A stretch of 33,753 nucleotides of DNA. Source: Lachnospiraceae bacterium. GTDB lineage: Bacteria; Bacillota; Clostridia; Lachnospirales; Lachnospiraceae. The stretch's first letter is position 1; each line of letters starts with the position of its first letter. Position numbers and translations under genes: made by a program. The stretch lies in the NCBI GenBank assembly GCA_030524665.1, contig JAUNGL010000005.1, positions 13,907 to 47,659 on the forward strand. Direction: 5' to 3'. The notes beneath the pieces are model-generated. The model was not told the origin of the DNA and made no database searches. It was given only the letters and a program-made list of their open reading frames with translations. Of the stretch, positions 252-28,726 are shown piece by piece.

Positions 252-383
252 GTTACTATTCACGGGGCAGTTGTCCCGCGAGGATTTATCCTGCCCATCC
301 TTTGGGCAGGATGCCGTCCCTGGCGAAGGGGCGTTGGGTGCGGTTACGAACCTGAATCCCGAGTTTTGTGTGCGAAAGGAGAT
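252..383 (+). repeat. Left-hand part of the dispersed GTTACTGTTCAC repeat family
   Basis: It starts with GTTACTATTCACGG and GTCCCGCGAGG, the left end seen in the copies at 7704 and 28572. A perfect 10-bp hairpin follows (ATCCTGCCCA / TGGGCAGGAT), then a second imperfect hairpin and the conserved AATCCCGAGTTTTG. The element breaks off at GCGAAA, directly where the ribosome site of the next gene begins. The right terminal repeat is absent. Confidence 0.75.
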
Positions 384-387
384 CGAT

Positions 388-813
388 ATGGATATTTTTG
401 ACAGGATCATGGAGCTTTCTGCTTCGGGCTATTACTGTTCTCAGATTATGGCGATTCTGCTTCTTGAAATGACGGAGGAGGAGAATGACGGATTGGTGCG
501 GGCGATGGGAGGACTGTGCGGCGGAGTGGGTTATTCCAATGGCTGCTGCGGCTGTATGACTGGGGGCTGCTGCCTGATTTCCTATTTTACGGGTAAGGGC
601 GGCGAAAATGAGATGGATCTTGAGGAACACAAGCCGGTCATGAAAGCATTTACCGACTGGTTTACGGAAGAAATGCAGATGGAGCATGGCGGAATTGAGT
701 GCAGTGATATTATCCGGGGAAATCCGGCGAAACGGGTACAGTACTGCCCGCAGATTATTGCCGCCTCATTTGAGAAGTGTATGGAACTTTTGCAGGAGGA
801 AGGAATCATATGA
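388..813 (+). CDS. C-GCAxxG-C-C family redox-type protein (DVU_1555-like)
   Basis: This 141-residue protein carries the family's cysteine pattern: YYCSQ near residue 17, then GGLCGGVGYSNGCCGCMTGGC in the middle and YCPQI near the C-terminus. C-GCAxxG-C-C proteins are small, probably redox-active or metal-binding, and of unproved biochemical role. One subgroup is restricted to molybdenum aldehyde oxidoreductase maturation loci, which fits here. The ATG at 388 is chosen because AAAGGAG lies 6 bases upstream and the family homology begins there, although the frame is open back to position 76. The stop codon overlaps the next start as ATGA (810-813), so translation is probably coupled to the radical SAM gene. 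The ribosome site is built from the end of a repeat remnant. Confidence 0.8.
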   Translation: MDIFDRIMELSASGYYCSQIMAILLLEMTEEENDGLVRAMGGLCGGVGYSNGCCGCMTGGCCLISYFTGKGGENEMDLEEHKPVMKAFTDWFTEEMQMEHGGIECSDIIRGNPAKRVQYCPQIIAASFEKCMELLQEEGII

Positions 814-2147
814 GGCGTGTCATCAACAGGACACAGAGCGTTTGTCCGGTATGTCTGAAAACGATTAAGGCAGAACGGATCATGGATACGGATCATAAAA
901 TCTACATGCAGAAACAATGTCAGGAGCATGGCAGTTTCCGGACACTGATCTGGGAGGGTGATCTGGCCAGCTACTACCGCTGGAACCAGCAGAACGAACA
1001 CCAGGAATCACCTGTGAATCCGGAAAAGACGGAGAAGCATGGCTGCCCGAATGACTGCGGAATGTGCACGGAGCATCTGAGTAAGGGCTGCTGTATGCTG
1101 CTGGAACTGACCAATCGCTGCAATTTGCAGTGTCCGGTCTGCTTCGCCTCTGCTGGAGAAAATCCCCCCAGTGATCTGTCTCTGGAAGAAATCGGGCGGC
1201 AGTTTGATTTTCTCATGAATCACGGAGGCCCGTTCAATATTCAGCTCTCCGGCGGAGAGCCGACGATGCGTGACGACTTGCCTGCAATTATCCAGATGGG
1301 CAGGGAGAAGGGATTTACGTTTTTCCAGTTGAACACGAATGGAATCCGGCTGGCTGAGGAGGAAGGTTATGCCGCAGAGCTGAAAGAGGCGGGTCTGAAT
1401 ACGGTATTTCTTCAGTTTGACGGTGTGACGGATGAGGTATATCAGATTTTGAGGGGACGTCCGCTGTTGGAACAGAAGCAGCGGGCAATCCGTAACTGCG
1501 GGGAGGCTGGCCTGGGTGTGGTACTGGTACCGGTGATTGCTCCGGGAGTGAATGAAAATCAGGTGGGAGATATTCTGAAATTTGCCATGGATCGGATGCC
1601 GGAGATCCGGGGCGTACATTTCCAGCCGATCAGTTATTTTGGAAGATGTTCTCTGGATGCCGAAGGGGACCGGATTACCATTCCCAGGATGCTGCGGCTG
1701 ATTGAGGCACAGACGGATGGGCAGATGAAGGCCGGGGATTTTGCCGGCGGAGGTGCTGAGAATCCATACTGTTCCTTCCATGCCAGCTATATGAAGGGAG
1801 ACAGCGGAGCTTTGCGGGCATTGAAGAAAAAGAGTACCTGCTGCTGTTGTACCAGCTCTGACGATTCCAGAGAATTTGTAGCCAGGCAGTGGAGCGGGCA
1901 GGAAGAACGGTACGAGATGCCGGCGGACGGTCCGCTGTCCGATACTTCCGGGCTAGATGCCTTTTTGGAAGAGGCAAGAAAAAGAACCCTTGCCGTGTCC
2001 GGTATGATCTTCCAGGACGCTTATAATTTTGATCTGGACAGAGTTCGCCGCTGTTATATCTGTGAACTGGACGCAGAATACGGTATGGTGCCATTCTGTG
2101 CCTATAATTTAACAAATAGAAAGGGAGAATATCTCTACAGGAAGTAA
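810..2147 (+). CDS. trsS: Radical SAM protein, TrsS-like, of the molybdenum hydroxylase maturation system
   Basis: This 445-residue protein has a radical SAM cluster motif at C104-x3-C108-x2-C111 (CNLQCPVC), SGGEPT at 147-152 and an FNIQLSGGEP strand that would bind SAM. In front is a CPVC pair (C12, C15) plus C37, and a GCPNDCGMC segment. Further cysteines form a run of four at 344-347 and a CxxC near 415-418, so more than one iron-sulfur site is likely. TrsS proteins are known as radical SAM (seleno)proteins of the DVU_1551-1558-type cluster. This copy uses cysteines only, and no in-frame TGA was seen. The start at 810 follows AGGAGGA at 795-801 and overlaps the previous stop. The substrate is unknown. 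Confidence is high for radical SAM, moderate for TrsS. Confidence 0.85.
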   Translation: MRRVINRTQSVCPVCLKTIKAERIMDTDHKIYMQKQCQEHGSFRTLIWEGDLASYYRWNQQNEHQESPVNPEKTEKHGCPNDCGMCTEHLSKGCCMLLELTNRCNLQCPVCFASAGENPPSDLSLEEIGRQFDFLMNHGGPFNIQLSGGEPTMRDDLPAIIQMGREKGFTFFQLNTNGIRLAEEEGYAAELKEAGLNTVFLQFDGVTDEVYQILRGRPLLEQKQRAIRNCGEAGLGVVLVPVIAPGVNENQVGDILKFAMDRMPEIRGVHFQPISYFGRCSLDAEGDRITIPRMLRLIEAQTDGQMKAGDFAGGGAENPYCSFHASYMKGDSGALRALKKKSTCCCCTSSDDSREFVARQWSGQEERYEMPADGPLSDTSGLDAFLEEARKRTLAVSGMIFQDAYNFDLDRVRRCYICELDAEYGMVPFCAYNLTNRKGEYLYRK

Positions 2148-2149
2148 GG

Positions 2150-3415
2150 ATGAAAAAAAGCAGACTGGATGAAATGATTATGAGACTGGAGGGGCTGGAT
2201 TCTCTGGAGCGCAGGGAAATCGAGATGCTCCAGCTTGGCAAATTGAATAAGCTGCTGCGCAGGGAATGTGAGAGGGGAGGATTTTATTCGGAGCTTCCCG
2301 AAAAACTGAATTCTCTGGCAGAGCTGTCTGATCTTCCGTTTACCACGGCGGAGGATTTGCAGCGAAACAGCGGCCGGATGCTGCTGTGTTCCCAGAACGA
2401 GGTGCAGAGAGTCATCACAGACCGGACCAGTGGGACTACCGGTCAGCCCAAACGTCTTTTTTACACAAAAGAAGATCTGGAACATACGGTCCTTTTATTC
2501 ATGGCAGGACTTGGAGAATTTATTTATCCGGGCGGCAGAACGATGATCTGTATGCCGTTTTCCGGGCCGTACGGTCTGGGGGAGCTGATCGCAGAGGCTG
2601 TGGAGCGGCTGGGAGCGGACGCCCTCCGGATCGGACCGTTTCTCACTTATTCGGAGTATGAAAAGGTGATTCGGGAGGAGCGGCCTGATACTTTTGTAGG
2701 AATGCCGGTGCAGCTGCTTTCGATTCTGCGTTTCTGCGGGAAAGGCAGTCTGCAGCGGGCATTAGTCAGTGGGGATGCCTGCCCTGAAACGGTCATGACT
2801 CAGTGTGAGGCTTTGCTGGGAACAGAACTGTTCCCGCATTACGGTTCCAGAGAAATGGCTCTGGGCGGTGCAGTTACCTGTCCGGCCCATGAGGGAATGC
2901 ATCTGAGGGAGAATCATGTGATCGCGGAGATTATTGATGAACAGGGAAGAGTGCTCCCGAATGGGCAGTATGGAGAACTGGTCATTACAACGATTGGAAT
3001 GGCGGCGCAGCCTTTAATCCGCTACCGTACAGGAGACTATACCAGAATTCTTGCAGAACCGTGTCCCTGCGGAAGCCAGACGATCCGTCTGGATCAGGTG
3101 AGGCGGAAAGAGGAAGCAGGAATCCCCACCATCGAGGAACTGGACAATATTCTTTTTGGGTTTCCGGAGGTGGTCGATTATCATGCAGACTATAGGTTGC
3201 TATTCACGACCCTACCGTCTGCAAACAGCAACGTCCAGCCGTCTCCGTGCCTGCATCTGGAACTGCTCACAGTGAAAGATTGTCCGGAAACAGCTATCTG
3301 CGGACTGATTAGAGAAAAATACAGGAATCTGGATGTGACAATAGCTGCAAGGCAGTGTACTGGCGAATGCAGATCCCTGTATAGTGGAAAGCGTGTTGTT
3401 GCGTCACTTCAGTAG
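2150..3415 (+). CDS. AMP-dependent CoA ligase-like protein (DVU_1553-type, phenylacetate-CoA ligase fold)
   Basis: The 421-residue protein has the adenylate-forming P-loop TSGTTGQPK (S94-K101), the HYGSREMALGG acyl-adenylate motif and LIRYRTGDYTRI, all typical of PaaK/CapK-like ligases. A GEL-VIT region precedes the hinge. It begins two bases after the radical SAM stop, with GGAAG upstream, and is therefore in the same operon. In related loci a ligase of this type accompanies the radical SAM and NTP transferase genes. Its substrate is unknown, and activation of a cofactor intermediate is inference only. Residues about 349-361 (LLFTTLPSANSNV) are encoded by a stretch resembling the small dispersed hairpin repeat, so this surface loop may be a recent insertion. 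The gene ends 12 bases inside the convergent cysteine desulfurase. Confidence 0.78.
   Translation: MKKSRLDEMIMRLEGLDSLERREIEMLQLGKLNKLLRRECERGGFYSELPEKLNSLAELSDLPFTTAEDLQRNSGRMLLCSQNEVQRVITDRTSGTTGQPKRLFYTKEDLEHTVLLFMAGLGEFIYPGGRTMICMPFSGPYGLGELIAEAVERLGADALRIGPFLTYSEYEKVIREERPDTFVGMPVQLLSILRFCGKGSLQRALVSGDACPETVMTQCEALLGTELFPHYGSREMALGGAVTCPAHEGMHLRENHVIAEIIDEQGRVLPNGQYGELVITTIGMAAQPLIRYRTGDYTRILAEPCPCGSQTIRLDQVRRKEEAGIPTIEELDNILFGFPEVVDYHADYRLLFTTLPSANSNVQPSPCLHLELLTVKDCPETAICGLIREKYRNLDVTIAARQCTGECRSLYSGKRVVASLQ
3196..3232 (+). repeat. Decayed minimal hairpin repeat inside the ligase gene
   Basis: GTTGCTATTCAC at 3196 and GCAAACAGCAAC ending at 3232 match each other's complements at 9 of 12 positions. 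They resemble the terminal repeats GTTACTGTTCAC/GTGAACAGTAAC. The span of 37 bp equals the minimal copies at 27620-27656 and 28690-28726. Confidence 0.5.
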
Positions 3416-4594
3416 AAACGGCTTGCGGCCCTCAACCTTATCGTTCCAGAGCGGAGAGCAGCTCCGAAGGGAGGCCACTGTCTGAGTGACAGCATGGATG
3501 ATTGTTTCCACTTCTTCCGCAGTGTTGGTCTCACACAGTGAGATGCGGAGAGAAGCGCGGGCTAATTCGCGGGGCAGGCCGATGGCACGGAGCACATGGC
3601 TGGGGTCTGCTGAGGAAGAGGTACAGGCAGAACCGGCAGAGGCACAGATTCCCTGCTGATCCAGGGCAAGGAGAAGCCGTTCACCGTCGATGCCTTCAAA
3701 GCATATATTTACATTTCCGGGCAGACGGTGCGTTGGACTTCCGTTCAGGGCAGAATGGGGAATCTGCAGCAGGCCCTCCATAAGCCTGGACTGTAAAGCT
3801 GTTACTTTAGTAGAATTTTCTTCCATGTGAAGGCAGGCTTCTTTCAGGGCAGCGGCCATTCCGAGAATCGCAGGTACATTTTCCGTACCGGCCCGTCTGC
3901 CGCCTTCCTGTCCGCCGCCTTCGATCAGGCTGGCCACCGGAGTTCCCTTCTGTGCGTATAACACGCCGGTTCCTTTTGGACCATGAAATTTGTGGGCAGA
4001 GAGTGAAAGCAGCGGAATTTCCTGTTGTTTCACATGAATCGGAATATGGCCCACTGCCTGGACTGCATCTGTGTGGAATAGTACCTGGCGCTCTCTGCAA
4101 AGCCGGCTGATCTCCGGAATGGGGAGAATGGTGCCGATTTCATTATTGGCATACATAACAGTGACCAGGGCGGTATCCGGACGGATAGCGTCTGCCACCT
4201 GTTCCGGAGTCACCTCGCCGAGGTTATTTACCGGGAGATATTCTACGGAAAATCCTTCTTTTTGAAGTTTCTGAAGGGCATGAAGGACTGCGTGGTGCTC
4301 AATGGGGGTGGACAAAATATGCTTTTTACCCTTTCGCGAACCGATTTTTGCGGCAGAGAGGATGGCCTGATTGTCCGCTTCGCTGCCGCCGGAAGTGAAG
4401 ATGATTTCCTTCGGATGGCAGCCGAGACAGGCGGCGATCTGTGTTCTGGCTTCATAGAGAGCTTCTGCAGCCTGCTGGCCGACCGAATGCAGGCTGGAGG
4501 GATTGCCGTAGATGAGGTCAAAGCAGGGGAGCATTGCCTGAATTGCGGCAGGGGACATCTTCGTGGTTGCGGCATTATCTACATAAATTTTCAT
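3404..4594 (-). CDS. Cysteine desulfurase, NifS/IscS-like (class V aminotransferase)
   Basis: This 396-residue PLP enzyme shows YVDNAATT at the N-terminus, TSGGSEADN (67-75), the PLP-contacting histidine H100, the Schiff-base lysine K202 in SAHKFHGPKG, and the catalytic cysteine C324 in GSACTSSS. NifS proteins remove sulfur (or selenium) from cysteine (selenocysteine), leaving a persulfide on the cysteine. A NifS-like gene is a known marker of selenium-dependent molybdenum hydroxylase loci, where it probably supplies the terminal sulfur or selenium ligand of the cofactor. Here it lies on the opposite strand and overlaps the ligase 3' end by 12 bases. GGAGG at 4603-4607 on the minus strand sets the ATG. 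A general iron-sulfur role cannot be excluded. Confidence 0.9.
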   Translation of the reverse strand: MKIYVDNAATTKMSPAAIQAMLPCFDLIYGNPSSLHSVGQQAAEALYEARTQIAACLGCHPKEIIFTSGGSEADNQAILSAAKIGSRKGKKHILSTPIEHHAVLHALQKLQKEGFSVEYLPVNNLGEVTPEQVADAIRPDTALVTVMYANNEIGTILPIPEISRLCRERQVLFHTDAVQAVGHIPIHVKQQEIPLLSLSAHKFHGPKGTGVLYAQKGTPVASLIEGGGQEGGRRAGTENVPAILGMAAALKEACLHMEENSTKVTALQSRLMEGLLQIPHSALNGSPTHRLPGNVNICFEGIDGERLLLALDQQGICASAGSACTSSSADPSHVLRAIGLPRELARASLRISLCETNTAEEVETIIHAVTQTVASLRSCSPLWNDKVEGRKPFLLK

Positions 4595-4766
4595 TTTCTT
4601 ACCTCCGTTCTGATGAGAATGCGGGGTTACTGTGGATTATTAAACCTTTTTGAAATGTTAGCTGCTGTTCGCAGACGGAAGGGCTGTGAATCGTAACAAT
4701 GTTATAAAAATTATAGCAATTATGATCAGAATAATCAATCAGAGAACATCAGAATTGTACAATTGT

Positions 4767-4857
4767 GTTACTGTTCGTTACTGTTCAGCTATCGGGGAGC
4801 TGCATAAGCAGCGGATCGTCTGCGGGGCTGTGGTCTGAATGGCGTCAGAATCGTAAC
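4767..4857 (+). repeat. Degenerate copy of the dispersed repeat, with a tandem 10-bp left end
   Basis: GTTACTGTTC occurs twice back to back (4767-4776, 4777-4786), followed by AGCTATCGGGGAGC and ending near a CGTAAC remnant at 4852-4857. It fills most of the divergent gap between the desulfurase and the NTP-transferase fusion. A further remnant (GTTACTGTGGA at 4626, GTGAATCGTAAC near 4686) lies closer to the desulfurase. The rest of this gap is AT-rich and shows no gene. Confidence 0.5.
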
Positions 4858-4876
4858 AAATGAAGGAGGCGGGGGT

Positions 4877-6544: not shown

Positions 6545-6553
6545 AAGGCTGAT

Positions 6554-7631: not shown

Positions 7632-7693
7632 GTTACAGTTTATACTCCGGCTATTCAGCGAGGATTTGTCCTGCACATAATTTGGGCAGGAGG
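7632..7693 (+). repeat. Degraded left-end copy of the dispersed repeat
   Basis: GTTACAGTTTATACTCCGG, then GCTATTCAGCGAGGATT and a TCCTGC...GGGCAGGA hairpin align with the left part of the copies at 252 and 15332. The right end is missing, and a complete copy starts 11 bases later. Confidence 0.55.
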
Positions 7694-7703
7694 TAGTTTT
7701 GGG

Positions 7704-7867
7704 GTTACTGTTCACGGGGGAGCTGTCCCGCGAGGTGTTCAGGTGCGGTTTCGCACCTGAATCCCGAGTTTTGAGGCGCGAAATCGCATGAAATGCGATT
7801 TCTGTGCATCGCGAAGCGTTGTTACTGGTCAGACGGCTGCCATTTGGGCAGACGTGTGAACAGTAAC
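7704..7867 (+). repeat. Complete dispersed repeat element with perfect 12-bp terminal inverted repeats
   Basis: GTTACTGTTCAC at 7704-7715 is the exact complement of GTGAACAGTAAC at 7856-7867. Inside are GTCCCGCGAGG, a perfect 8-bp hairpin (7740-7747/7752-7759), AATCCCGAGTTTTG, a perfect 10-bp hairpin with a GAA loop (7780-7789/7793-7802), CTGTGCATCGCGAAGCG, and a right-hand hairpin (7821-7867) that itself carries both end types. There is no open reading frame, so it resembles a MITE or a REP-like element. No target duplication is obvious. Confidence 0.85.
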
Positions 7868-7966
7868 GTCTTGGGCGCAGGAAGCTTTTATGCAGAGGTG
7901 CACTAATTCCCCGAAGTGTGTAGTTTGTGGTCCATGTGATGAAAGATAGTCTGGGGAGGGTACGAA

Positions 7967-10327: not shown

Positions 10328-13315
10328 ATGAGAAGGAAGAAGTCGCAGTGGAAAAAAGCAGCGGCAGCTGTGTTGGCGGCAGCGATGGTATTGCAGAATG
10401 GTTTTTCAATAACTGCAGGGCGTGCTTTGGCACAGGAGGAAACAGAGGGTATGGAATTGCGGAAGCTGACCGCACCGGTGCTTCGGACAGAAGATGGATC
10501 GGCTTTCTCTGCCCGGCTGAGGATCGGAGACTGGCTGGATTACGGGGATTATGAAATAGAGCGCGCGGATATTCCCGGGACAGCTTATTTTTTCTATATT
10601 ACAACTCAGGATATGGATGGGACGGTGATCAATGACGATCAGCTGGCGTACTGTATTCAGTCTTATTTTCTGACGCCTTTGCCTGGGGATCACAGCGATG
10701 ATATGACGGATCAGGTTTCGGCGGTCGGAGATAAGAAAAATCTGCATAAGGTAATCTATTATGGGTACGGCGGTGAAGGTTACGAGGCGGATGAGTTTGT
10801 TGCGTTTCTTGTGCAGACGGATGCAGAATATTATAAGAACGTGTATACTGCATTGAGTGAAAGTGAGCAGGCGGAACTCTGTTATATTCTGACTCATGCA
10901 GCGGCAAGCTATGCTTATTTCACGGATGGGACACCTTTTGATGAATATATCCGGCTTCAGTTCGAGCTTAAATATGGAGAGACCTGGGAGGAGGAATTGA
11001 TTCACTTCACGGAGCAGGAGCTGGAGAAGGCGAAGATCACAGACGGCGATATGAACCTCTTCGGTGCGACCTACGGGATGAATCCTGCGGGAATTGCTCT
11101 GACAAAAGGCTGGTATCAGCTTCTGAGCAGCAAAAAGGAGCCAGGACTGAGTGTTACTGCGAACGATGGAGTTTATACATTCTATGGAAATGAAAGGAAT
11201 GACGAACTGGAGCTGACATTTGATGTTCCGGATGGTTTTAGCTGTACCATGCTCAGAAGCGGCGGAGAGGCGGAGAATGTCCCGGAAGGTACAGAAGTGA
11301 CTGTCCGTCCCGAGGAGAGCTTTGCGTTTACATTTACGGATGAAGCTGTTTCTTCAGAGCCAGGCGGTATTTCAGAATTGACTGTACCGGTGGAGGGAAC
11401 CCTGTCAGGGGCCGAACAGGAAGTCTGGAATCTTGTTTTGCTGCAGACGAATAAAGGGACTGACACAACAATCGTAAAGCGCCAGCAGGATATTGCGGCT
11501 GTTTCCATGCTGGATGCCGGAAGAACAGAGTTGAGCTTCGCGATAGAAATGCAGAAGGGTTCTGTCTCGGTCACCCTGACAGATGATACGAATCAGGCAG
11601 TGCAGGGTGCCGAATTTGGCGTTTACTATGATGAGGGATGCAGTAAGCCCGTGCAGCAGGATGGTGAAGCAGTCCGGATGATAACCGGTTCAAAGGGCGA
11701 CGCATATCTGGAATGTGTCATCAACCAGGAGTTGCAGGAAAATGGAGGCAGGCTGTATGTGAAAATGCTGACGGCACCGACCGGTTATCTTATGGATGAG
11801 GAGGTTCATTGTATAGAGATCGATCAAAATGCAGCGAGCATGGCTGAACGTGAAACAACATCCGTGAGCGGTGCAGTGAGCTGGAAGGTTCCGGAAGGGA
11901 CCGTGCTGCCGAAAGAGGTCAGCGTAGAATTGCAGCAGGATGATGAAACAGTTGATACGAAAATCGTGACAGCGGATGATGACTGGAGCTACGAATGGGA
12001 TCAACTGCCGAGATACTGCACGGAGACGGACGGCAGTGCTGCGGAATACAAATATGGTATTGAAATAGCGCCGATAGAAGGTTATGATACAATGGTCGAC
12101 GGCTATGATGCAATAAATACGATTACCGGAGAAACCAGTGTAAGCGGTCAGGTAATCTGGCACGACCATGATGATGCGGATGGGCTGCGTCCGGAAAGTC
12201 TGACGATAGATCTCTATCGCAGCCAGTATCTCCCTGATCCGGAACATGACGGAGAGCAGGAAAGTGTGACTGAGAATCTCCATCGTGAGGATGTTCCGGT
12301 TGACAGTGTGCAGATCAGTGAAGCTGATGACTGGAAGTATAGCTTTGATGGTCTGGACCGATACAGTGTGGATGGAAAGGAAGAGTACGTTTATACGGTT
12401 GGTGCGCAGGTACCGGAAGAGTATACATTTGAGCCGGAAGGGGATCAGCTTGTGGGGACACATACTGCCTCCGCTTCGGTGGACATTGAAGGGATTGTAA
12501 ATCTGAACGGCGGGGATCTGAAAGATGGAGAATATTCTTTCGAACTGACGCAGGTGACGGATGAAACCGGTGAAACTGAGGTGGAAAATGGAATCCACAG
12601 GACAGCGGTGAATGATCTGGACGGAAAGGTTGTATTTCCGGATATCATCTGTACAGAGCCCGGAACGTATTATTTCCGGATTACAGAAATAACGGCGCCA
12701 GCCGGGGACGAGGGAATCCTGGAGCAGATGGAAGACGAGAGGACAGCGGCGCCGACGGAAGACGAAGAAACGTTAGTGGAGACAGAAGACGAGGGAACTA
12801 TGGCGTCGGCAGAAGACGAGGAAACCAGGGCGCCAGCCGGGGACGAAAGAACCGCGATGCTGATGGAAGACGAAGAAACCTCAGCGCAGACAGAAGACGA
12901 GGAAACCAGGGTGCCGGTCGGGGACGAAGGAACGCCGATACAGGCAGATGAGAAGGATGCGCTGAAAGCGGCAGCATATATTGCAAAGGTAGAAGTGACT
13001 GTCGGAGGGGAAAACATGGATCAGCTGGAAGCAGAGGTTACATATCCGAATGGACAGCCTGAATTTGAACATGTATATACTGTATCTGATATGGAAACAG
13101 AGACAGAAGCCCGGGACGAGGCGGGCGAATCTGAAACTGAGATGAAAACAGAGGCGGAAAACACGGAGAACATAGAGGACACGGAATCAAAGAATGCTGA
13201 ATCAGAAAGCACAGAGAATACAGAAGCAAAACACAGCACAGTGATACCATTTCTGATTTTGATGATTATTATAGTGTTCATCATCTTTATTTGGCGAAAC
13301 AGGCACAGAAAGTAA
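10328..13315 (+). CDS. Large surface adhesin: thioester domain, CnaB-type repeats, split isopeptide-linker domain, C-terminal membrane anchor
   Basis: This 995-residue protein starts with a signal peptide (RRKKSQWKK then a hydrophobic run, cleavage near ALA-Q). A thioester domain follows: YCIQ at C109 and VQTDA at Q163 match the paired Cys/Gln motifs that form an internal thioester able to bond host proteins. A SpaA-like fold (about 411-505) and two CnaB-like units starting TSVSG (about 512 and 604) form the stalk. A pilin isopeptide-linker-like domain starts at about 735 and resumes at about 885. Between its halves lies an acidic nine-residue repeat block (794-874). The end has a transmembrane helix and RNRHRK, but no LPXTG motif was seen, so sortase anchoring is unlikely. 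AGGAGG at 10315-10320 sets the start. Host-contact function is inferred from domains. Confidence 0.85.
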   Translation: MRRKKSQWKKAAAAVLAAAMVLQNGFSITAGRALAQEETEGMELRKLTAPVLRTEDGSAFSARLRIGDWLDYGDYEIERADIPGTAYFFYITTQDMDGTVINDDQLAYCIQSYFLTPLPGDHSDDMTDQVSAVGDKKNLHKVIYYGYGGEGYEADEFVAFLVQTDAEYYKNVYTALSESEQAELCYILTHAAASYAYFTDGTPFDEYIRLQFELKYGETWEEELIHFTEQELEKAKITDGDMNLFGATYGMNPAGIALTKGWYQLLSSKKEPGLSVTANDGVYTFYGNERNDELELTFDVPDGFSCTMLRSGGEAENVPEGTEVTVRPEESFAFTFTDEAVSSEPGGISELTVPVEGTLSGAEQEVWNLVLLQTNKGTDTTIVKRQQDIAAVSMLDAGRTELSFAIEMQKGSVSVTLTDDTNQAVQGAEFGVYYDEGCSKPVQQDGEAVRMITGSKGDAYLECVINQELQENGGRLYVKMLTAPTGYLMDEEVHCIEIDQNAASMAERETTSVSGAVSWKVPEGTVLPKEVSVELQQDDETVDTKIVTADDDWSYEWDQLPRYCTETDGSAAEYKYGIEIAPIEGYDTMVDGYDAINTITGETSVSGQVIWHDHDDADGLRPESLTIDLYRSQYLPDPEHDGEQESVTENLHREDVPVDSVQISEADDWKYSFDGLDRYSVDGKEEYVYTVGAQVPEEYTFEPEGDQLVGTHTASASVDIEGIVNLNGGDLKDGEYSFELTQVTDETGETEVENGIHRTAVNDLDGKVVFPDIICTEPGTYYFRITEITAPAGDEGILEQMEDERTAAPTEDEETLVETEDEGTMASAEDEETRAPAGDERTAMLMEDEETSAQTEDEETRVPVGDEGTPIQADEKDALKAAAYIAKVEVTVGGENMDQLEAEVTYPNGQPEFEHVYTVSDMETETEARDEAGESETEMKTEAENTENIEDTESKNAESESTENTEAKHSTVIPFLILMIIIVFIIFIWRNRHRK
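12707..12949 (+). repeat. 27-bp minisatellite, nine units, in frame within the adhesin gene
   Basis: Nine consecutive units of nine codons follow the pattern Asp-Glu-(Glu/Gly/Arg)-Thr/Ile-four variable residues-Glu/Gly/Asp, for example DEETRAPAG and DEETSAQTE. Units differ by point changes, and unit number could change by slippage without shifting the frame. Confidence 0.9.
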
Positions 13316-13461
13316 GCATTTTTGCAACTATTATCACCCGAAGTGTGTGACCGCCTGCAGCCTGTATGGCTGAACTGTAACGGATTGACAGGACTGTAAT
13401 TCCAGGTATTGGCGTAACGTAAACAGAAGCAGTGATTGAGAGTGTAAGAGAAGGACGGAAG

Positions 13462-15331: not shown

Positions 15332-15455
15332 GTTACCGTTTACGGGGCAGCTATCCCGCGAGGATTATCCTGCCCGCCTTATGGGCAGAGTGCAGAGTGT
15401 ATGGATTCGGAAAAGCAGATGTCAGCTGAAGCTGCCGCGAATCCCGTGAAAAACT
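15332..15455 (+). repeat. Copy of the dispersed repeat, left part with diverged right side
   Basis: GTTACCGTTTACGGGGCAG, CTATCCCGCGAGGATT and a CCTGCCC...GGGCAG hairpin match the copy at 252. A GTCAGCTGAAGCTG palindromic stretch and AATCCCG follow. The right terminal repeat is not found. It fills the gap upstream of the hydrolase-rhodanese gene. Confidence 0.65.
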
Positions 15456-22623: not shown

Positions 22624-22624
22624 A

Positions 22625-22650: not shown

Positions 22651-22683
22651 CGTTCCGTGCGTCTGCAAAAAAATATTAAAAAT

Positions 22684-22718
22684 GTTACTGTTCACGTCCA
22701 ATGTCAGTGAATAGTAAC
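22684..22718 (+). repeat. Minimal 35-bp hairpin copy of the dispersed repeat
   Basis: GTTACTGTTCAC (22684-22695) and GTGAATAGTAAC (22707-22718) are complementary at 11 of 12 positions around an 11-nt loop. It lies in the leader region before argS. Confidence 0.85.
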
Positions 22719-22757
22719 ACAACAGTAACGATTCAAGTGATAAAATGAAAAAACAGG

Positions 22758-22787
22758 TTGTAGAAATACTTGACCGTGTGATATACT
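22758..22787 (+). promoter_or_regulatory. Promoter candidate for argS
   Basis: TTGTAG and TATACT are separated by 18 bases, about 80-110 bases ahead of argS. No T-box motif (AGGGTGGNACCGCG-like) was found in the short leader. Confidence 0.45.
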
Positions 22788-22894
22788 AGCTCAATGATTT
22801 GATGATACCTTACCGTGCAGTGCTCTATGCGGCATTGTGTATAGGGAATGCCGGGAAGGAATAAAGTATGAAAGCAGAAAAAGGGAGGATGAAG

Positions 22895-24661
22895 ATGAAA
22901 AAGGTACTTGACCTGATCAGTCAGGAAGTCATGGACGCTTTTGAGAACTGTGGATATGAAGCATCTTATGGAAAGACAGGCATTTCAAACCGTCCGGACC
23001 TGTGTGAATATCAGTGTAATGGTGCGCTTGCAGCCGCTAAGAAGTATAAAAAAGCACCGATCATGATTGCGAATGATGTGGTGGCAGTTTTGAAGGAGAA
23101 GCCGGTATTCGCAGAGGTATCGGCAGTGAATCCGGGCTTTATTAATATGAAGGTTTCCGGTGAATTTACAGCAGAATACTTGCTCGCAATGCAGGCGGAT
23201 GAAAATCTGTCTGTGGAGAAAACCGATGCTCCGAAGACGATTATCATAGATTACGGCGGGCCGAATGTGGCGAAGCCTCTGCATGTCGGACACCTTCGGT
23301 CGGCGATTATCGGAGAGAGTGTGAAGCGCATCTGCCGTTTCATGGGACATAAGGTGATCGGAGATGTACATCTGGGCGATTGGGGGCTCCAGATGGGACT
23401 GATTATCACGGAGGTGAAGCACCGCCAGCCGGAGCTTCCGTATTTCGATGAGAGCTTTACCGGAGCATATCCGGAAGAGGCACCGTTTACGATTTCTGAG
23501 CTGGAGGAGATTTATCCGACTGCGAGTGCGAAATCAAAAGAAGATGCTGCCTATAAAGAAGAAGCCCTGGATGCGACTGCAAAGCTGCAGAACGGAGTGC
23601 GCGGATACCATGCGCTGTGGCAGCATATCCTGAATGTTTCAGTTGCCGATCTGAAGAGGAACTACAGCAATCTGAATGTGGAGTTTGACCTGTGGAAAAA
23701 AGAATCCGATGCACAGCCGTATATTCCTGATATGGTAGAGGCCATGAAGAGGGACGGATATGCATATGAGGATCAGGGGGCGCTGATCGTAGATGTGAAG
23801 GAAGAGTCTGATGCGAAAGAGATCCCGCCGTGTATCATTCTGAAGTCGGATGGTGCGGCACTCTATACGACGACAGACCTGGCAACGATCATTGACCGGA
23901 TGAAGCTGTTCGCACCGGATGAGATAATCTATCTCGCCGATAAGCGCCAGGAGATGCACTTTACCCAGGTATTCCGCTGTGCACGCAAGACAGGGCTGGT
24001 GAAGGATGAGACAGGGCTGAAATTCATCGGTTTCGGTACGATGAATGGAAAGGACGGAAAACCGTTCAAGACACGTTCCGGCGGAGTGATGCGACTGGAA
24101 CATCTGCTTTCTGATATCAATGAAGAGATGTTCCGCAAGATTACGGAGAATCATGAGGTAGATCCGGAAGAAGCGCGTGAGACGGCAAAGCTGGTCGGAC
24201 TGTCTGCGGTCAAGTACGGAGACCTGTCGAATCAGGCTTCCAAGGATTATGTCTTTGATGTGGAGCGTTTTACTTCTTTTGAAGGCAATACCGGACCGTA
24301 CATTCTGTATACGATTGTGCGTATCAAGTCTATCCTGAACAAATATCGCGCAGCAGGAGGCACCGTGGAGCAGGGGCATATCGTGAGCCCGGCCAGCGAG
24401 AGTGAGAAGGCGCTGATGCTTGAGATCGTGAAGTTCAACAGCATGATGGAGCAGGCATACGAGGAGAAGGCGCCGCACAAGATCTGCTCCTTCATCTATG
24501 ATCTGGCGAACGCGTTCAACCATTTCTACCATGAGACGAAGATTCTCGGCGCGGAGGATGCGGCACAGCAGAAGAGCTGGATCGAGGTGCTGGATCTGAC
24601 ACGGAGGGTGCTTGAGACATCGATTGACCTGCTTGGGTTCGAGGCACCGGAGCGGATGTAA
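22895..24661 (+). CDS. argS: Arginyl-tRNA synthetase
   Basis: ArgRS charges tRNA-Arg with arginine in the cytoplasm. This 588-residue class I synthetase has the Arg-N domain (SNRPDLCEYQCNGALAAAKK), the HIGH-type motif HVGH at 130-133 in GPNVAKPLHVGHLRS, YTTTDLATIIDR, and the catalytic-loop equivalent FKTRSGG (K392). The C-terminal anticodon-binding domain ends with a normal LLGFEAPERM, so the gene is complete. The start at 22895 gives the usual MKKVLDLIS beginning and has GGGAGG 6 bases upstream. An in-frame ATG at 22868, with AAGGA, would add nine residues and is a real alternative. A hairpin terminator follows. Confidence 0.97.
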   Translation: MKKVLDLISQEVMDAFENCGYEASYGKTGISNRPDLCEYQCNGALAAAKKYKKAPIMIANDVVAVLKEKPVFAEVSAVNPGFINMKVSGEFTAEYLLAMQADENLSVEKTDAPKTIIIDYGGPNVAKPLHVGHLRSAIIGESVKRICRFMGHKVIGDVHLGDWGLQMGLIITEVKHRQPELPYFDESFTGAYPEEAPFTISELEEIYPTASAKSKEDAAYKEEALDATAKLQNGVRGYHALWQHILNVSVADLKRNYSNLNVEFDLWKKESDAQPYIPDMVEAMKRDGYAYEDQGALIVDVKEESDAKEIPPCIILKSDGAALYTTTDLATIIDRMKLFAPDEIIYLADKRQEMHFTQVFRCARKTGLVKDETGLKFIGFGTMNGKDGKPFKTRSGGVMRLEHLLSDINEEMFRKITENHEVDPEEARETAKLVGLSAVKYGDLSNQASKDYVFDVERFTSFEGNTGPYILYTIVRIKSILNKYRAAGGTVEQGHIVSPASESEKALMLEIVKFNSMMEQAYEEKAPHKICSFIYDLANAFNHFYHETKILGAEDAAQQKSWIEVLDLTRRVLETSIDLLGFEAPERM

Positions 24662-24681
24662 GAAAATATAGATGAATGATA

Positions 24682-24714
24682 AAGCCGGGCATGCAATGTT
24701 TGCCCGGCTTTTCT
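24682..24714 (+). terminator. Rho-independent terminator after argS
   Basis: AAGCCGGGCA (24682-24691) and TGCCCGGCTT (24701-24710) form a perfect stem, followed by TTC. It separates argS from the convergent lectin gene. Confidence 0.85.
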
Positions 24715-24775
24715 GTCTGAAAACCTGAGATGTATTTCTATGCTTTTGCAGAAATGATAAATACTTCGAGGTCAA

Positions 24776-25783
24776 TTATTTTACATTTATTGTTTTAATA
24801 GATGACCAGTTTCCATATGCTGTTTTTCCATTATTGGTTGCATATGCGCGGACGCGGACAGAATAAGTACTTTTTGACAATTTTTTCAAAACTTTGGAAG
24901 TTAAATTGGAACCAGCTTTTACCGTATAAGTCTTTCCGAAGGATTTTGTATACTGTATCTGATAGCCGGTGATGTAGTTCATTTTATTCCATTTCACAGT
25001 AATCTGTTTTGTTCCAGTGCGTTTTACAGAGACACCTGTAATCTGTTTTGGTTTTATTTTAAAGTATTTATTTAGGCTGCCGGTATATTTTCCTTTGCCG
25101 ACAATTTTGGCGTATCCATATCCGGGAAATTTATTTGCAATGTAGGTTACTGTATAATCTGTTCCTTCTGTCAGGGTCTTTTTATTTAATTGAACGGTAA
25201 CTTTAGGTTCGCGGGTTTTGCCATTATAGGTATATGAGGTAGAGGAAAGTTTCACTGTTGCATTTTTAATGGAGGTCTTGCCGGAATCCCATTCGCAAAG
25301 GAACCAATAATCACCGTCCCAGCCATTATCCCATTCGCCGACTTCCCATCGGTAAGTGCTGTTTGCTCTCGTGTTGATCACACAAATTGTCTGTCCAGTC
25401 CAGTCAGGTTGTCCGGCACCCCAATTTTGGTATTTTACTTTTTCACCTGTGACCCAGGTATCCCATGTTCCATTACTGCCATTTGCATCATACAGACCAA
25501 TCATTGCACTGCAGCCAGGGTGTTCGGAATCCAGATAATTTGTAATCATACGGTTTTCGGCAGCGGAAGAAATCGTTGCCAGATGTCCGCCCAGCGATTT
25601 GCAAAATGTGTTGGCATCTGCGAATTTCATACAGTTGTGATACAATTGATAATAATGTCCCTTCCATTCTTTTGCAGTAGACGGGATCTTTGTGGTGGCC
25701 GCTGAAACCATTAGTGGAATAGACAAACTCATAAAAACAGCGGCAATTCCAGTAAAAAGACGTACAAGTTTCTTTGGTTTCAT
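24776..25783 (-). CDS. Secreted C-type-lectin-domain protein with C-terminal fibronectin-like module
   Basis: The 335-residue protein has a signal peptide (1-28, ending VSA). A C-type lectin-like domain spans about 38-170: CKSLGGHLATISSAAEN, AMIGLYDANGSNGTWD, VKYQNWGAGQPDW and WEVGEWDNGWDGDYWFLCEW. The QPD-like motif is the position that in calcium-dependent lectins gives galactose-type preference; binding here is unproven. Residues 175-245 look like a bacterial Ig/MBG-type repeat (SYTYNGKTREPKVTV), and 248-335 like a fibronectin type III domain. It has no membrane anchor or sortase motif, so it is probably released. The gene is clearly more AT-rich than its neighbours and uses different codons, which suggests recent acquisition. 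A consensus -35 promoter lies upstream. GGGGGG precedes the ATG. Confidence 0.82.
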   Translation of the reverse strand: MKPKKLVRLFTGIAAVFMSLSIPLMVSAATTKIPSTAKEWKGHYYQLYHNCMKFADANTFCKSLGGHLATISSAAENRMITNYLDSEHPGCSAMIGLYDANGSNGTWDTWVTGEKVKYQNWGAGQPDWTGQTICVINTRANSTYRWEVGEWDNGWDGDYWFLCEWDSGKTSIKNATVKLSSTSYTYNGKTREPKVTVQLNKKTLTEGTDYTVTYIANKFPGYGYAKIVGKGKYTGSLNKYFKIKPKQITGVSVKRTGTKQITVKWNKMNYITGYQIQYTKSFGKTYTVKAGSNLTSKVLKKLSKSTYSVRVRAYATNNGKTAYGNWSSIKTINVK

Positions 25784-25819
25784 AACATGTTTTCCCCCCT
25801 TATAAAATAGATGATTTTA

Positions 25820-25848
25820 GTTTAATCTGTTATATAAAATCTTGTCAA
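25820..25848 (-). promoter_or_regulatory. Promoter candidate of the lectin-domain gene
   Basis: On the minus strand TTGACA (25848-25843) and TTAAAC (25825-25820) are separated by 17 bases, about 37 bases ahead of the start codon. The -10 box is weak. Confidence 0.5.
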
Positions 25849-25996
25849 GTGAATAATGAGGACAGTTTATCATTTTAGTATTTATTAGTTATAGAGCTTG
25901 TCTGAAAATTAATATTACGTAGTAAAACGGAAATAATTGTGATACAATATGATCTTGTAATGAGTTTCATAAATTTATGTAATACAGGAGAAATAT

Positions 25997-27028
25997 ATGA
26001 CGAATAGAAAAAGAATCACAGCTGCCGCTGCTCTCGCACTGGCATTGCTCGGTGCCGCTGCGGCCGGGTCTGCACAGCAAAAGGATGTGGAGGCGGAGAA
26101 GAATATTTTTGCTATGGACACTTTTATGACACTCAGAGCTATCGGGCCGGAAGCGGAGAAGGCAGTAGAGGCGGCTTCGAAGGAAATCCTGCGGCTGGAT
26201 GCCATGCTGTCCACAGGAAATGAGAACAGCGTGGTTTACCGGCTGAATCAGGATGGCGAGGGGACAGCGACAGAAGAGATGGCAGAGCTGCTTGCGTATT
26301 CGGAGGATTTGTATGAGAGTACGGATGGCTGCTTTAATATCGCGATTTATCCGGTGATGCAGCTTTGGGGATTCCCAACGGGAGAATATCATGTGCCGGA
26401 TGAGAAGGAGCTTGCGCAGGTACAGGATCTTCTTGATATGAGCAAGGTACAGTTTGATGAGGAAAGTGGGAAAATCACACTTTTGCAGGAAGGGATGGCA
26501 ATTGATTTCGGAGGAATTGCAAAAGGCTATACGTCCTCCAGAGTGATGGAAATGTTTGAAGAATACGGTGTGGAAGCCGGTCTGATCAATCTTGGGGGCA
26601 ATGTCCATACGTTCCGGACGAAGACGGACGGATCGTACTGGCGGGTGGCAATCAAGAACCCGTGGAATACAGATGCGTATCTCGGTGTGGTGGAAGTCGC
26701 GGATGAGGCTGTGATTACTTCAGGCGGATATGAGAGATCTTTTGAGGAAGACGGACAGACGTATCACCATATCATTGATCCTGCTACATGTACCCCGGCA
26801 GAAGCAGGGCTTACATCTGTCACGATTGTGAGCAAAGACGGCACACTGGCTGACGGACTGTCCACTTCGCTTTATATTATGGGGCGTGAGAAGGCGGAGG
26901 CATACTGGCGGGAGCACCCGGATGAATTTGAAACGATTCTGGTGGAGGAGGATGGGACGGTTGCTGTGTCGGAAGGGCTGGCGGACCGTTTTACCTCAGA
27001 GGAAGAGTTTGAGATTATGAAAAGGTGA
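25997..27028 (+). CDS. ApbE-family FAD:protein FMN transferase
   Basis: ApbE attaches FMN from FAD to threonine of flavoproteins such as RnfG and NqrC on the outer side of the membrane, with magnesium. This 343-residue protein has an N-terminal signal peptide (alanine-rich run ending near GSA), FAMDTFMTLR at the start of the mature domain, DFGGIAKGY (170-178), INLGGNVHTF and ADGLSTSLYIMG. In HHIIDPATCTP (257-267) a cysteine stands where the usual motif has glycine after threonine. No lipobox cysteine is seen, so membrane attachment may depend on an uncleaved signal. No target flavoprotein is encoded nearby. AGGAG precedes the ATG by 6 bases. Confidence 0.92.
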   Translation: MTNRKRITAAAALALALLGAAAAGSAQQKDVEAEKNIFAMDTFMTLRAIGPEAEKAVEAASKEILRLDAMLSTGNENSVVYRLNQDGEGTATEEMAELLAYSEDLYESTDGCFNIAIYPVMQLWGFPTGEYHVPDEKELAQVQDLLDMSKVQFDEESGKITLLQEGMAIDFGGIAKGYTSSRVMEMFEEYGVEAGLINLGGNVHTFRTKTDGSYWRVAIKNPWNTDAYLGVVEVADEAVITSGGYERSFEEDGQTYHHIIDPATCTPAEAGLTSVTIVSKDGTLADGLSTSLYIMGREKAEAYWREHPDEFETILVEEDGTVAVSEGLADRFTSEEEFEIMKR

Positions 27029-27161
27029 TGGATATGGCTGCCGCGAAGAAACGGTGTATGGAAAGAAATGCTGCGTCATAAAGTTGGGTTATCATATATA
27101 TGGAAACGCTGACGGATTGAGGATTGGGACAGCCATGCAGCAGAAAGACAGGAGAAAGAAA

Positions 27162-27530
27162 ATGAAATATATCAAGCAGTTTGCGATTATACTGGCGGTA
27201 TCATTTATTGGGGAGGTGCTTCACGAAATCCTTCCGCTGCCTGTACCGGCAAGCATTTATGGTCTGGTGCTGATGCTCGCAGCGTTGAAGACGGGAATCA
27301 TTCCGCTGGCTTCCGTTCGTGAGGCGGGGAAATTTCTGATTGAGATTATGCCGCTGATGTTTATTCCGGCGGCAGTCGGCCTGACGGAATCCTGGGAGCG
27401 GATCAGTCCGATTCTCGTTCCCCTTCTTGTGATTACGGCAGTTTCTACCGTGGCAGTCATGGCTGCGGCAGGGCGTGTGACGCAGGCGGTGCAGAGAGCG
27501 GGCAGCGGGAAGCATGCAAAGGAAAAATAA
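27162..27530 (+). CDS. CidA/LrgA-family membrane protein
   Basis: The 122-residue protein has four hydrophobic segments and the LrgA/CidA signature LPLPVPASIYGLVLMLAALK, followed by FLIEIMPLMFIPAAVGL. These proteins were described as holin-like. Later work connects the LrgAB type with export of small metabolites such as pyruvate or glycolate, so the function here is open. The ATG at 27162 has AGGAG upstream, and the frame is open further left without family similarity. The LrgB gene follows after 153 bases of repeat-containing sequence, so the pair is probably one transcription unit with a hairpin-rich spacer. Confidence 0.88.
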   Translation: MKYIKQFAIILAVSFIGEVLHEILPLPVPASIYGLVLMLAALKTGIIPLASVREAGKFLIEIMPLMFIPAAVGLTESWERISPILVPLLVITAVSTVAVMAAAGRVTQAVQRAGSGKHAKEK

Positions 27531-27531
27531 T

Positions 27532-27552
27532 ACGGCATCCAGTGATGCCGTG
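27532..27552 (+). terminator. Short hairpin after the LrgA-type gene, possible weak terminator
   Basis: ACGGCATC and GATGCCGT pair perfectly around CAGT. A T-run appears only 10 bases later, beyond a repeat end, so it may attenuate or simply stabilise the upstream message. Confidence 0.35.
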
Positions 27553-27656
27553 AACAGTAACTTTTTATCTCATAACAGACACCCCCGCATCACTGGGGAA
27601 GAGTGAACGTTCATTCATTGTTACTATTTACGGTTCCTTGTTCCGTGAACAGTAAT
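27550..27656 (+). repeat. Dispersed repeat pieces between lrgA-type and lrgB-type genes
   Basis: A right end GTGAACAGTAAC (27550-27561) is followed by a complete 37-bp minimal hairpin (27620-27656): GTTACTATTTACGG pairs with CCGTGAACAGTAAT. The two pieces fill the spacer between the paired genes. Confidence 0.8.
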
Positions 27657-27683
27657 CATTTATTTGCTGCAGGAGGCAGGAAT

Positions 27684-28379
27684 ATGGTTAAGGAAATACT
27701 TTGCAATTCCACCTTTTTTGGGGTGGCCGTCAGCATTCTGGCTTATGAATTCGGGCTGCTGCTGAAGAAGAAACTGAAGGTTTCGATACTGAATCCATTG
27801 CTGATATCCGTGATTCTGGTGATCGTGGTGTTGGCAGTCTTTGATGTGGATTATGAGAGCTACAGGCAGGGAGCGCAGATTCTGAGCTATCTGCTGACTC
27901 CGGCTACCGTTTGCCTTGCGATTCCGCTGTATGAACAGCTTGAACTGCTGATGCATAATCTGAAGGCAGTACTGGCAGGGCTTGTAGCCGGGGTATTGAC
28001 CAGCCTTGTCTCTATTTTTGTGCTGGCACTGCTGTTCGGGCTCAGTCATGAAGAATACGTGACGATGCTCCCGAAGTCGATCACGACAGCGATCGGGATG
28101 GGGGTATCGGAGGAGCTTGGCGGTATGGTAACAGTTACGGTAGCTGTGATTATTGTGACGGGAATTCTCGGAAATGTGATCGCAGAATACGTATGTAAAC
28201 TGTTTAAAATCGAAGAGCCAATAGCCAAAGGAGTCGCGATCGGCTCTGCCGCCCATGCGATCGGAACGGCAAAAGCAATGGAGATCGGAGAAGTAGAAGG
28301 TGCGATGAGCAGCCTTTCGATTGCGGTTGCAGGTCTTCTGACAGTAGTCGGAGCCTCAGTGTTTGCAAATTTTATCTGA
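27684..28379 (+). CDS. lrgB: LrgB/CidB-family membrane protein
   Basis: The 231-residue multi-pass membrane protein has the LrgB motifs LNPLLISVILVI, PATVCLAIPLYEQ, LPKSITTAIGMGVSEELGG and GSAAHAIGTAKAMEIGEVEG. LrgB works with LrgA. The pair has been associated with control of murein hydrolase activity and with metabolite transport. The ATG at 27684 has AGGAGG 7 bases upstream. The gene is complete. Downstream lies a 479-bp gap with a promoter-hairpin unit and a full repeat element. Confidence 0.93.
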   Translation: MVKEILCNSTFFGVAVSILAYEFGLLLKKKLKVSILNPLLISVILVIVVLAVFDVDYESYRQGAQILSYLLTPATVCLAIPLYEQLELLMHNLKAVLAGLVAGVLTSLVSIFVLALLFGLSHEEYVTMLPKSITTAIGMGVSEELGGMVTVTVAVIIVTGILGNVIAEYVCKLFKIEEPIAKGVAIGSAAHAIGTAKAMEIGEVEGAMSSLSIAVAGLLTVVGASVFANFI

Positions 28380-28395
28380 TTTACGAAAAAAGGTT

Positions 28396-28424
28396 TTGTA
28401 TTTTGTAAAATTCTGTGTTATAGT
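28396..28424 (+). promoter_or_regulatory. Promoter candidate immediately before a terminator-like hairpin
   Basis: TTGTAT and TATAGT are separated by 17 bases. Transcription would begin near 28431, only about 7 bases before the hairpin. Confidence 0.5.
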
Positions 28425-28437
28425 AAGCACTAATTAA

Positions 28438-28478
28438 GGAACAAAGACGCTCCTAAGGGGTAATTTTGTCCCTTTTTA
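28438..28478 (+). terminator. Terminator-like hairpin after lrgB
   Basis: GGAACAAA (28438-28445) pairs with TTTTGTCC (28464-28471) with one mismatch, with an inner TCCT/AGGGG pairing, followed by a T-run at 28473. It may end the LrgAB transcript, or end a very short RNA from the promoter just upstream. Confidence 0.55.
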
Positions 28479-28571
28479 TTCTATCGAGTGACTTTCTTCA
28501 ATTAAATTGCTAAAATGTGAAAGTAAAAACTCATAGAACGGGACAGCGCGCGGAGGTAGAGGAACATGCTC

Positions 28572-28726
28572 GTTACTGTTCGCAGGGTAGCTGTTCCGCG
28601 AGGTGTTTCCGGGCAGAATGCACGGAAATCCCGAGTACTGCGCGCGCGAAATTGTGCCGAAGGTACAATTTCTGTGCATCGCGAAGCGTGTTACTGCTCA
28701 CGAACCGCAGGGGTGTGAACAGTAAC
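28572..28726 (+). repeat. Near-complete dispersed repeat element
   Basis: GTTACTGTTCGC opens and GTGAACAGTAAC (28715-28726) closes the element. Inside are GTTCCGCGAGG, a 6-bp hairpin (28606-28611/28623-28628), AATCCCGAG, an 11-bp hairpin with a GAA loop (28648-28658/28662-28672), CTGTGCATCGCGAAGCG and a 37-bp right hairpin (28690-28726). The order is the same as in the copy at 7704. Confidence 0.85.

What the first reader, a model, noticed from the sequence alone, without database searches (positions are those of the whole stretch)
252..28726. Dispersed repeat family with terminal inverted repeats and covarying internal hairpins
At least eight copies or pieces share GTTACTGTTCAC/GTGAACAGTAAC ends: 252, 3196, 4767, 7632-7867, 15332, 22684, 27550-27656 and 28572. 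The two near-complete copies (7704-7867, 28572-28726) have the same module order. Their GAA-loop stems (7780-7802 and 28648-28672) keep pairing although about four base pairs differ on both sides (for example C-G versus T-A). The flanks AATCCCGAG and CTGTGCATCGCGAAGCG stay nearly constant. Compensating change means the folded form is maintained, as RNA or as single-stranded DNA. Small 35-37-bp hairpin forms seem to be independent units. This could be a MITE/REP family moved by a transposase elsewhere in the genome, or a structured RNA.
Basis: partly seen in the sequence, partly recalled or inferred. Interest (0 to 1): 0.75.

Follow-up and report, generated by a model that had tools for sequence, protein, structure and literature searches.

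The report
Jumping DNA carrying a folded RNA
The repeats look like tiny transposons without a transposase gene, found in one large family of gut bacteria, and they carry a folded, RNA-like core whose shape is preserved across many species although its sequence changes.

Summary
In detail: the 12-bp end occurs 23 times in the window at up to 2 mismatches, against 1.5 expected, and 109 times exactly in the draft genome against 0 for the reversed control.

Full copies (155-166 bp) are flanked by 8-bp target duplications (13 of 16 at 7/8 or better, none at eight shifted offsets). They are MITEs, not REPs. IS66-family elements in other Lachnospiraceae share the ends; two have exact 8-bp duplications.

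Inside sits a ~95-nt core: two hairpins plus a near-invariant CAUCGCGAAGCG tail, without an Rfam match. It occurs in 19 of 299 sampled family genomes and 41 times in this one. Covariation is strong: 17 of 26 pairs show double changes, and 21 further sequences unlike those score 0.702 against 0.201 shuffled. The core sits between at least two kinds of ends, both with duplications. Pairing is kept on internal branches and decays on terminal ones, so selection appears to act on copies that spread. What the fold does, and whether it is transcribed, is unknown.

The parts
7704..7867 (+). full-length MITE, 164 bp, 12-bp terminal inverted repeats
   Evidence: exact TIRs at both ends; direct repeats GTTTTGGG/GTCTTGGG, 7/8
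7696..7703 (.). left copy of target duplication (right copy 7868-7875)
7729..7825 (+). structured core (hairpins A and B plus CATCGCGAAGCG tail)
   Evidence: R1 99.9 bits, E 6e-22; this copy is one of the 45 in the model
7821..7867 (+). 47-bp palindromic right-end unit (internal TIR copy plus right TIR)
   Evidence: 42 of 47 identical, in reverse complement, to one end of the decayed IS66 in L008
28572..28726 (+). full-length MITE, 155 bp
   Evidence: direct repeats ACATGCTC/ACATGCTC, 8/8
28564..28571 (.). left copy of target duplication (right copy 28727-28734)
28597..28694 (+). structured core, other subfamily
   Evidence: R1 98.0 bits, E 2e-21; this copy is one of the 45 in the model
28690..28726 (+). 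37-bp palindromic right-end unit
   Evidence: a unit differing at one base is found solo with 7/8 direct repeats in L071
27620..27656 (.). solo 37-bp hairpin unit
   Evidence: direct repeats CATTCATT/CATTTATT, 7/8
22684..22718 (.). solo 35-bp TIR-TIR hairpin, no clear duplication
   Evidence: 4/8
252..373 (+). truncated left part with an extra hairpin module (ATCCTGCCC...GGGCAGGAT), then hairpin A; right end missing (end coordinate by eye)
7632..7695 (+). older, degraded left end directly beside the 7704 copy
15332..15391 (+). truncated left end with extra module
3196..3232 (.). degraded 37-bp hairpin unit inside a mechanical ORF (2150-3415)
   Evidence: no duplication seen by eye
4767..4788 (+). 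two overlapping end motifs of a degraded copy; inverted end motif at 4686-4697
27550..27561 (-). isolated right end

Best explanation
These are non-autonomous transposons (MITEs). SHOWN: 12-bp ends, 8-bp target duplications, high and patchy copy number, and the same ends on IS66-family transposase elements in related bacteria. INFERRED: an IS66-type transposase, supplied in trans and now rare or lost, moves them by these ends. SHOWN: in this genome all 16 full pairs carry a ~95-nt core (in some relatives the same ends also enclose unrelated interiors). The core has hairpin A (base CGAGG/CCGAG, read here as holding a tandem G.A, then a variable helix), hairpin B (GCGC...GUGC with a near-constant G.U pair and a bulged U, then a variable helix) and a near-invariant AUCGCGAAGCG tail. 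Pairing is kept through many compensating changes across genera, while several unpaired parts stay nearly fixed. INFERRED: one strand of the fold, most likely as RNA, is under selection for spread of the element rather than for a job at each site, because inserted copies lose pairing while the lineages that gave rise to other copies keep it. My best guess is that the folded transcript makes the copy productive or tolerable, by binding a protein or by shielding and processing neighbouring transcripts; that last step is a guess. Solo 37-47-bp units with duplications can arise by deletion between the left end and the internal direct repeat of that end.
For: Duplications: 13 of 16 full pairs 7/8 or better, 0 of 16 at each of eight shifted offsets. 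In 139 cores of L153-L292 (a few of them from the own genome), 103 have both ends and 74 of those a 7/8 or better duplication; the script picked the best-scoring end pair. IS66: both ends within 2 mismatches in 6 of 9 loci, exact 8-bp duplication in 2; PF03050 at E 1e-19 or better in the three proteins scanned, NF033517 below its cut-off; 17-bp end identity between the G031 IS and this genome's MITE unit. Core in all 16 full pairs. Fold: 45 sequences, covariation 0.414 against 0.170 shuffled and 0.11 or less slid; 29 distinct, 0.604 against 0.172; the 21 distinct of these that are less than 94% like any A1 row give 0.702 against 0.201, though aligned to the model; 73 double events on a tree of unpaired columns only, control mean 5.1, largest 27. 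Strand: G.U at one pair in 44 of 45 and 116 of 118; WC-to-GU against WC-to-AC events 38:20, p 0.025. Kept:lost 54:9 on internal and 40:36 on terminal branches, Fisher p 5e-5.
Against: No transposition or transcription was observed. Genomes with the core often lack a detectable intact matching IS66: none in this draft; of 8 named core-bearing genomes 4 have PF03050, and the nine elements whose ends could be read are of the GTAAGCG/GTAACCG type, while five further matches had no readable ends. The IS66 loci do not carry the core (no hit at E 1 in L008, L113, L115, L125-L132), so its origin is unexplained. Of the six IS loci with both ends, three have only 2-4 of 8 duplication matches. Orientation to neighbouring genes is only weakly biased (41 co-directional, 27 opposite, p 0.11), which gives little support to a cis-acting RNA. 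RNAalifold prefers another register at the base of hairpin A, so the tandem G.A is my reading. Sense folding is more stable in 114 of 118, but shuffles of 40 cores show nearly the same difference (mean -4.8 against -6.1), so energy says nothing about strand. The antisense strand of the window copy also folds far better than shuffles (z -9.1 against -6.7 sense). Some loss of pairing on terminal branches is expected under any purifying selection.
Confidence: 0.78

Rival explanations
1. The pairing is kept by a DNA process, not by selection: template switching or hairpin-guided repair keeps copying one arm onto the other, so palindromes stay perfect without any function.
For: Direct double changes far outnumber one-sided paired intermediates (73 against 27), as arm copying would give; the right-end units are themselves palindromes; both strands fold well.
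Against: The near-constant G.U pair and bulged U in hairpin B would be repaired away. Intermediates favour G.U over A.C (38:20), whereas arm copying is strand-blind. Copies lose pairing on terminal branches.
Confidence: 0.12
2. The fold works as single-stranded DNA, for example a hairpin exposed on one strand during replication or transposition, which the transposase or a host factor binds.
For: GCGAAGC, known as an unusually stable DNA mini-hairpin (recalled), lies in the near-invariant tail; a strand bias would also fit ssDNA.
Against: 8-bp duplications and inverted ends fit a double-stranded DDE reaction. The core is not needed for insertion: L133, L145 and L152 have exact duplications and no core match at E 1.
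Confidence: 0.15
3. The core serves the host: a cis-acting mRNA element or a small RNA kept at each locus, like a terminator or stabiliser.
For: Most copies lie between mechanical ORFs (107 of 124 with usable context; 30 at locus edges and 4 without neighbours set aside) and most cells stay paired.
Against: Weak orientation bias (p 0.11); no T-run behind the two window copies; terminal-branch decay; presence varies between species.
Confidence: 0.12
4. The repeats are moved by some other DDE transposase, and the shared end with IS66 elements is coincidence.
For: Only IS66 elements were searched for, because the decayed copy pointed there; no intact one in the own draft.
Against: The end at both sides of several IS66 elements plus the same 8-bp duplication in two; a decayed IS66 in this genome carries the MITE's own 47-bp end unit, 42 of 47.
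Confidence: 0.07

Closest known systems
bcr1-bcr18 repeats of the Bacillus cereus group (PMC3446304, passages seen; primary papers only cited there)
   Same: Interspersed intergenic repeats; bcr1-3 described as MITE-like, bcr10 and bcr18 as having conserved secondary structure; 84 of 165 and 62 of 155 repeat copies found in transcripts in two strains
   Different: Other host group; in the passages seen, MITE character and conserved RNA structure are ascribed to different bcr families; no IS66 link is mentioned in them
IS66 family insertion sequences (PF03050, NF033517)
   Same: DDE_Tnp_IS66 transposase, 8-bp duplications, inverted ends
   Different: The nine readable elements end GTAAGCG/GTAACCG; the elements matching the repeats end GTTACTGTTCAC or close variants, show one long sense ORF in the copies listed, and score just below the NCBIfam cut-off
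BOX, ERIC, RUP and NEMIS/Correia repeats (recalled, not tested)
   Same: Short modular or palindromic intergenic repeats able to fold as RNA; several are MITE-like
   Different: Sequence and ends differ; no such cross-genus covarying core recalled
REP/REPIN elements with RAYT (PMC3116915, start of abstract in a search listing only)
   Same: High-copy palindromic extragenic repeats
   Different: RAYT-type movement gives no target duplication (recalled); here 8 bp

Membership tests
MITE | terminal inverted repeats | tested here: met
MITE | target-site duplication of fixed length | tested here: met
   8 bp; 13 of 16 full pairs, 74 of 103
MITE | short, no transposase gene, many copies | tested here: met
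   mostly 141-166 bp; 41 cores and 109 motif hits in the genome
MITE | shares ends with an autonomous element | tested here: met
   intact element not found in the own genome
MITE | mobilised in trans | not testable with these tools
   needs a transposition assay
IS66-derived | IS66 transposase between the same ends | tested here: met
   6 of 9 loci with both ends within 2 mismatches; PF03050
IS66-derived | interior homologous to the IS | tested here: not met
   core absent from the IS loci; only the end unit is shared
structured RNA family | covariation beyond controls | tested here: met
   R-scape itself was not available
structured RNA family | transcribed | not testable with these tools
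   no expression data
structured RNA family | known Rfam family | tested here: not met
   no match for the window nor for the core in three relatives' stretches, L137, L139, L141
REP/REPIN (RAYT) | no target duplication | tested here: not met
   8-bp duplication

The most novel reading that the evidence does not exclude
A mobile structured RNA: a Lachnospiraceae RNA class, without an Rfam match in the stretches scanned, that travels as the cargo of MITEs, has been joined to at least two sets of transposon ends, and is selected because its fold is needed for the element to spread. It would be an RNA part in the life cycle of a DDE-type element, or a ribozyme or protein-binding RNA not yet described.
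Probability: 0.3. Interest if true: 0.85.

Novelty: new variant of a known kind. Interest (0 to 1): 0.62.

Why it matters
MITEs are usually seen as little more than ends (recalled). Here a family of gut bacteria carries them with a core whose fold is conserved across genera, in up to 70 copies per genome (G031), and the same core lies between different ends. That makes it testable whether an RNA (or one DNA strand) helps a DDE-type element spread or be tolerated. The core also had no Rfam match where scanned.

Tried and rejected
REP/RAYT: rejected by the 8-bp duplications. Known RNA family: no Rfam match (the only hit is a purine riboswitch beside the element in L139). Core inherited from the IS: rejected for the loci. 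Phage carriage: 7 viral stretches match the 16-mer exactly, none scores with the model at E 0.01. Intrinsic terminator: no T-run directly after the two window copies. Strand preference from fold energy: composition nearly explains it. Base-exact empty site in sister species: not shown. In 11 relatives whose matches flank the 28572 site on one contig, the interval is 117-338 bp shorter, in 9 of them by more than the 163 bp of copy plus duplication, but the intergenic stretch is too diverged to align in the ten loci tried. G113 C8 55475-56988 looked like an autonomous element by spacing but holds a 429-aa ORF that by eye looks like a housekeeping gene. CsrA and pseudoknot ideas were not pursued.

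Print: no paper in the held library contains the 12-mer or a core 14-mer. Searches joining Lachnospiraceae, IS66, structured RNA or repeat terms with MITE terms gave nothing on these repeats by titles and abstract starts (one search listed 20 of 378). Nothing outside that library was searched.

Full report
1. What is there. The motif GTTACTGTTCAC occurs 23 times at up to 2 mismatches in the window; shuffles give 1.47 on average and 4 at most. In the draft genome (3.39 Mb, 242 contigs, 82% complete) there are 109 exact hits and none for the motif read backwards. Counting the own genome, 34 of 47 genomes of the genus have at least one hit, and 87 of 299 in the family sample, patchily, up to 80+93.

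2. It is a transposon. I took 51 stretches around motif hits of the own genome besides 30 loci and the window, and listed pairs of inverted ends. Of 16 pairs 150-170 bp long, 13 have direct repeats matching at 7 or 8 of 8 positions, and none does at any of eight shifted offsets. The three misses are L048 (5/8) and two adjoining copies in L059 (6/8 and 0/8). Other lengths also have 8/8 repeats (for example 78, 211 and 212 bp). Short units of 26-60 bp reach 7/8 or better in 8 of 53 pairs; many of the rest are ends of longer copies.

3. The source of mobility. L008 in the own genome holds a 1248-bp unit with 8/8 duplications, one end with 2 mismatches, and pieces of an IS66 transposase (PF03050 E 0.0075 for one piece, below the curated cut-off, none for the other). 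A relative of it in G031, cut by the contig end, has GTTACTGTTCACACGTC directly behind the gene, 17 bases shared with the right-end unit of this genome's MITEs. With that protein, 8 of 299 family genomes gave matches at E 1e-40. Of nine loci then examined, six have the end at both sides; two of these have exact 8-bp duplications, three have 2-4 of 8, and one lies at a contig end; the other three show one end or none complete. The three proteins scanned are IS66 by Pfam and match NCBIfam's IS66 model just under its cut-off. No PF03050 gene passed E 0.001 in the own draft. In eight named core-bearing genomes four have PF03050; the nine elements with readable ends are of the GTAAGCG/GTAACCG type, five matches had none. 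An intact matching IS thus seems rarer than its MITEs.

4. The core. All 16 full pairs of this genome contain a ~95-nt segment. From all loci 160 cores were cut and 13 seeds set aside; 147 are unique, some of them chance seeds. 118 pass a sequence filter on the first nine bases and length, 29 were dropped, and 45 remain below 94% similarity. On these 45 (A1) 96.5% of cells pair against 84.0% shuffled, 17 of 26 pairs change on both sides, and the covariation score is 0.414 against 0.170, with 0.03-0.11 when slid. The structure was set by me from the alignment; RNAalifold finds the same two helices with another register at the base of hairpin A. On a tree from unpaired columns only, 73 compatible double changes are counted over 25 pairs against a mean of 5.1 (maximum 27) with partner columns permuted. 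Thirty matches in loci, fitted to the model and so leaning towards it, give 0.604 against 0.172; eight of them are close to A1 rows, and the 21 distinct others give 0.702 against 0.201, largest shuffle 0.245.

5. Spread. The model R1 finds the core in 19 of 299 family genomes (at most 14 candidates scored each), 7 of 40 genus genomes with 41 copies in the own genome and 70 in G031, and 2 of 391 class genomes, both in the same family; each count includes the own genome, and searches used stricter filters. R1 gives no hit in the IS66 loci. Rfam has no match in the window, nor for the core in three short stretches from relatives.

6. One core, different ends. In 139 cores of L153-L292, 103 have both ends. 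Ends of the GTTACTGTTCAC kind are followed by a duplication of 7/8 or better in 43 of 57; of the GTAACAGTTCAG kind in 23 of 34; GTTACAGTTCAC 7 of 9; GTAACTATTCAG 1 of 3. The script chose the best-scoring pair of ends, which favours duplications slightly. In the other direction, the same ends enclose unrelated interiors in some relatives.

7. RNA or DNA, and for whom. One pair is G.U in 44 of 45 and 116 of 118 sequences beside a bulged U; perfect-palindrome repair would remove both. Changes from a standard pair go to G.U 38 times and to A.C 20 times (p 0.025), which favours one strand. Fold energy does not: the sense-antisense difference is close to that of shuffled cores, and both strands of the 7704 copy fold better than shuffles. 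On a tree of all columns, pairing is kept in 54 and lost in 9 changes on internal branches, 40 and 36 on terminal ones (p 5e-5). Copies therefore seem to decay after insertion, while the lineages that multiply keep the fold. Neighbouring genes show 41 co-directional against 27 opposite placements (p 0.11); 17 of 124 copies with usable context lie inside a mechanical ORF.

8. Solo units. The 37-bp and 47-bp units are the right ends of full copies and begin with a direct repeat of the left end. Deletion between the two repeats would leave exactly such a unit with its duplication; independent movement is the alternative. The data do not decide.

9. What is not shown. No transcript, no transposition, no base-exact empty site. 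The function of the fold is inferred from its evolution alone. The closest parallels in print that I saw are the bcr repeats of Bacillus cereus (PMC3446304, passages; PMC2267715, passages).

Noticed in passing
window 13370-13381; L060 5142-5367: A second MITE family with ends near GTTACAGTTCAG; the L060 copy is 226 bp with an exact 8-bp duplication. The window holds a fragment.
   Followed up: partly
L084 1485-1512, L083 2131-2172 (G113): 28- and 42-bp units that are little more than two abutting ends, each with an exact 8-bp duplication: among the shortest duplication-flanked units I saw.
   Followed up: no
window 252-373, L040, L019, L031: Some copies carry extra hairpin modules between the CGCGAGG motif and hairpin A, or beside hairpin B, so the interior is modular.
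   Followed up: no
L092, L098 (G113); L133, L134, L150 (G002): MITEs with the same ends but another interior, shared between two genera.
   Followed up: no
window 12686-12933: Direct repeats with 27-bp spacing inside a 995-aa ORF (10328-13315).
   Followed up: no
window 168-239: Tandem pair of a 36-bp unit, 94% identical.
   Followed up: no
L139 481-576: Purine riboswitch about 100 bp from a MITE copy in G156.
   Followed up: no
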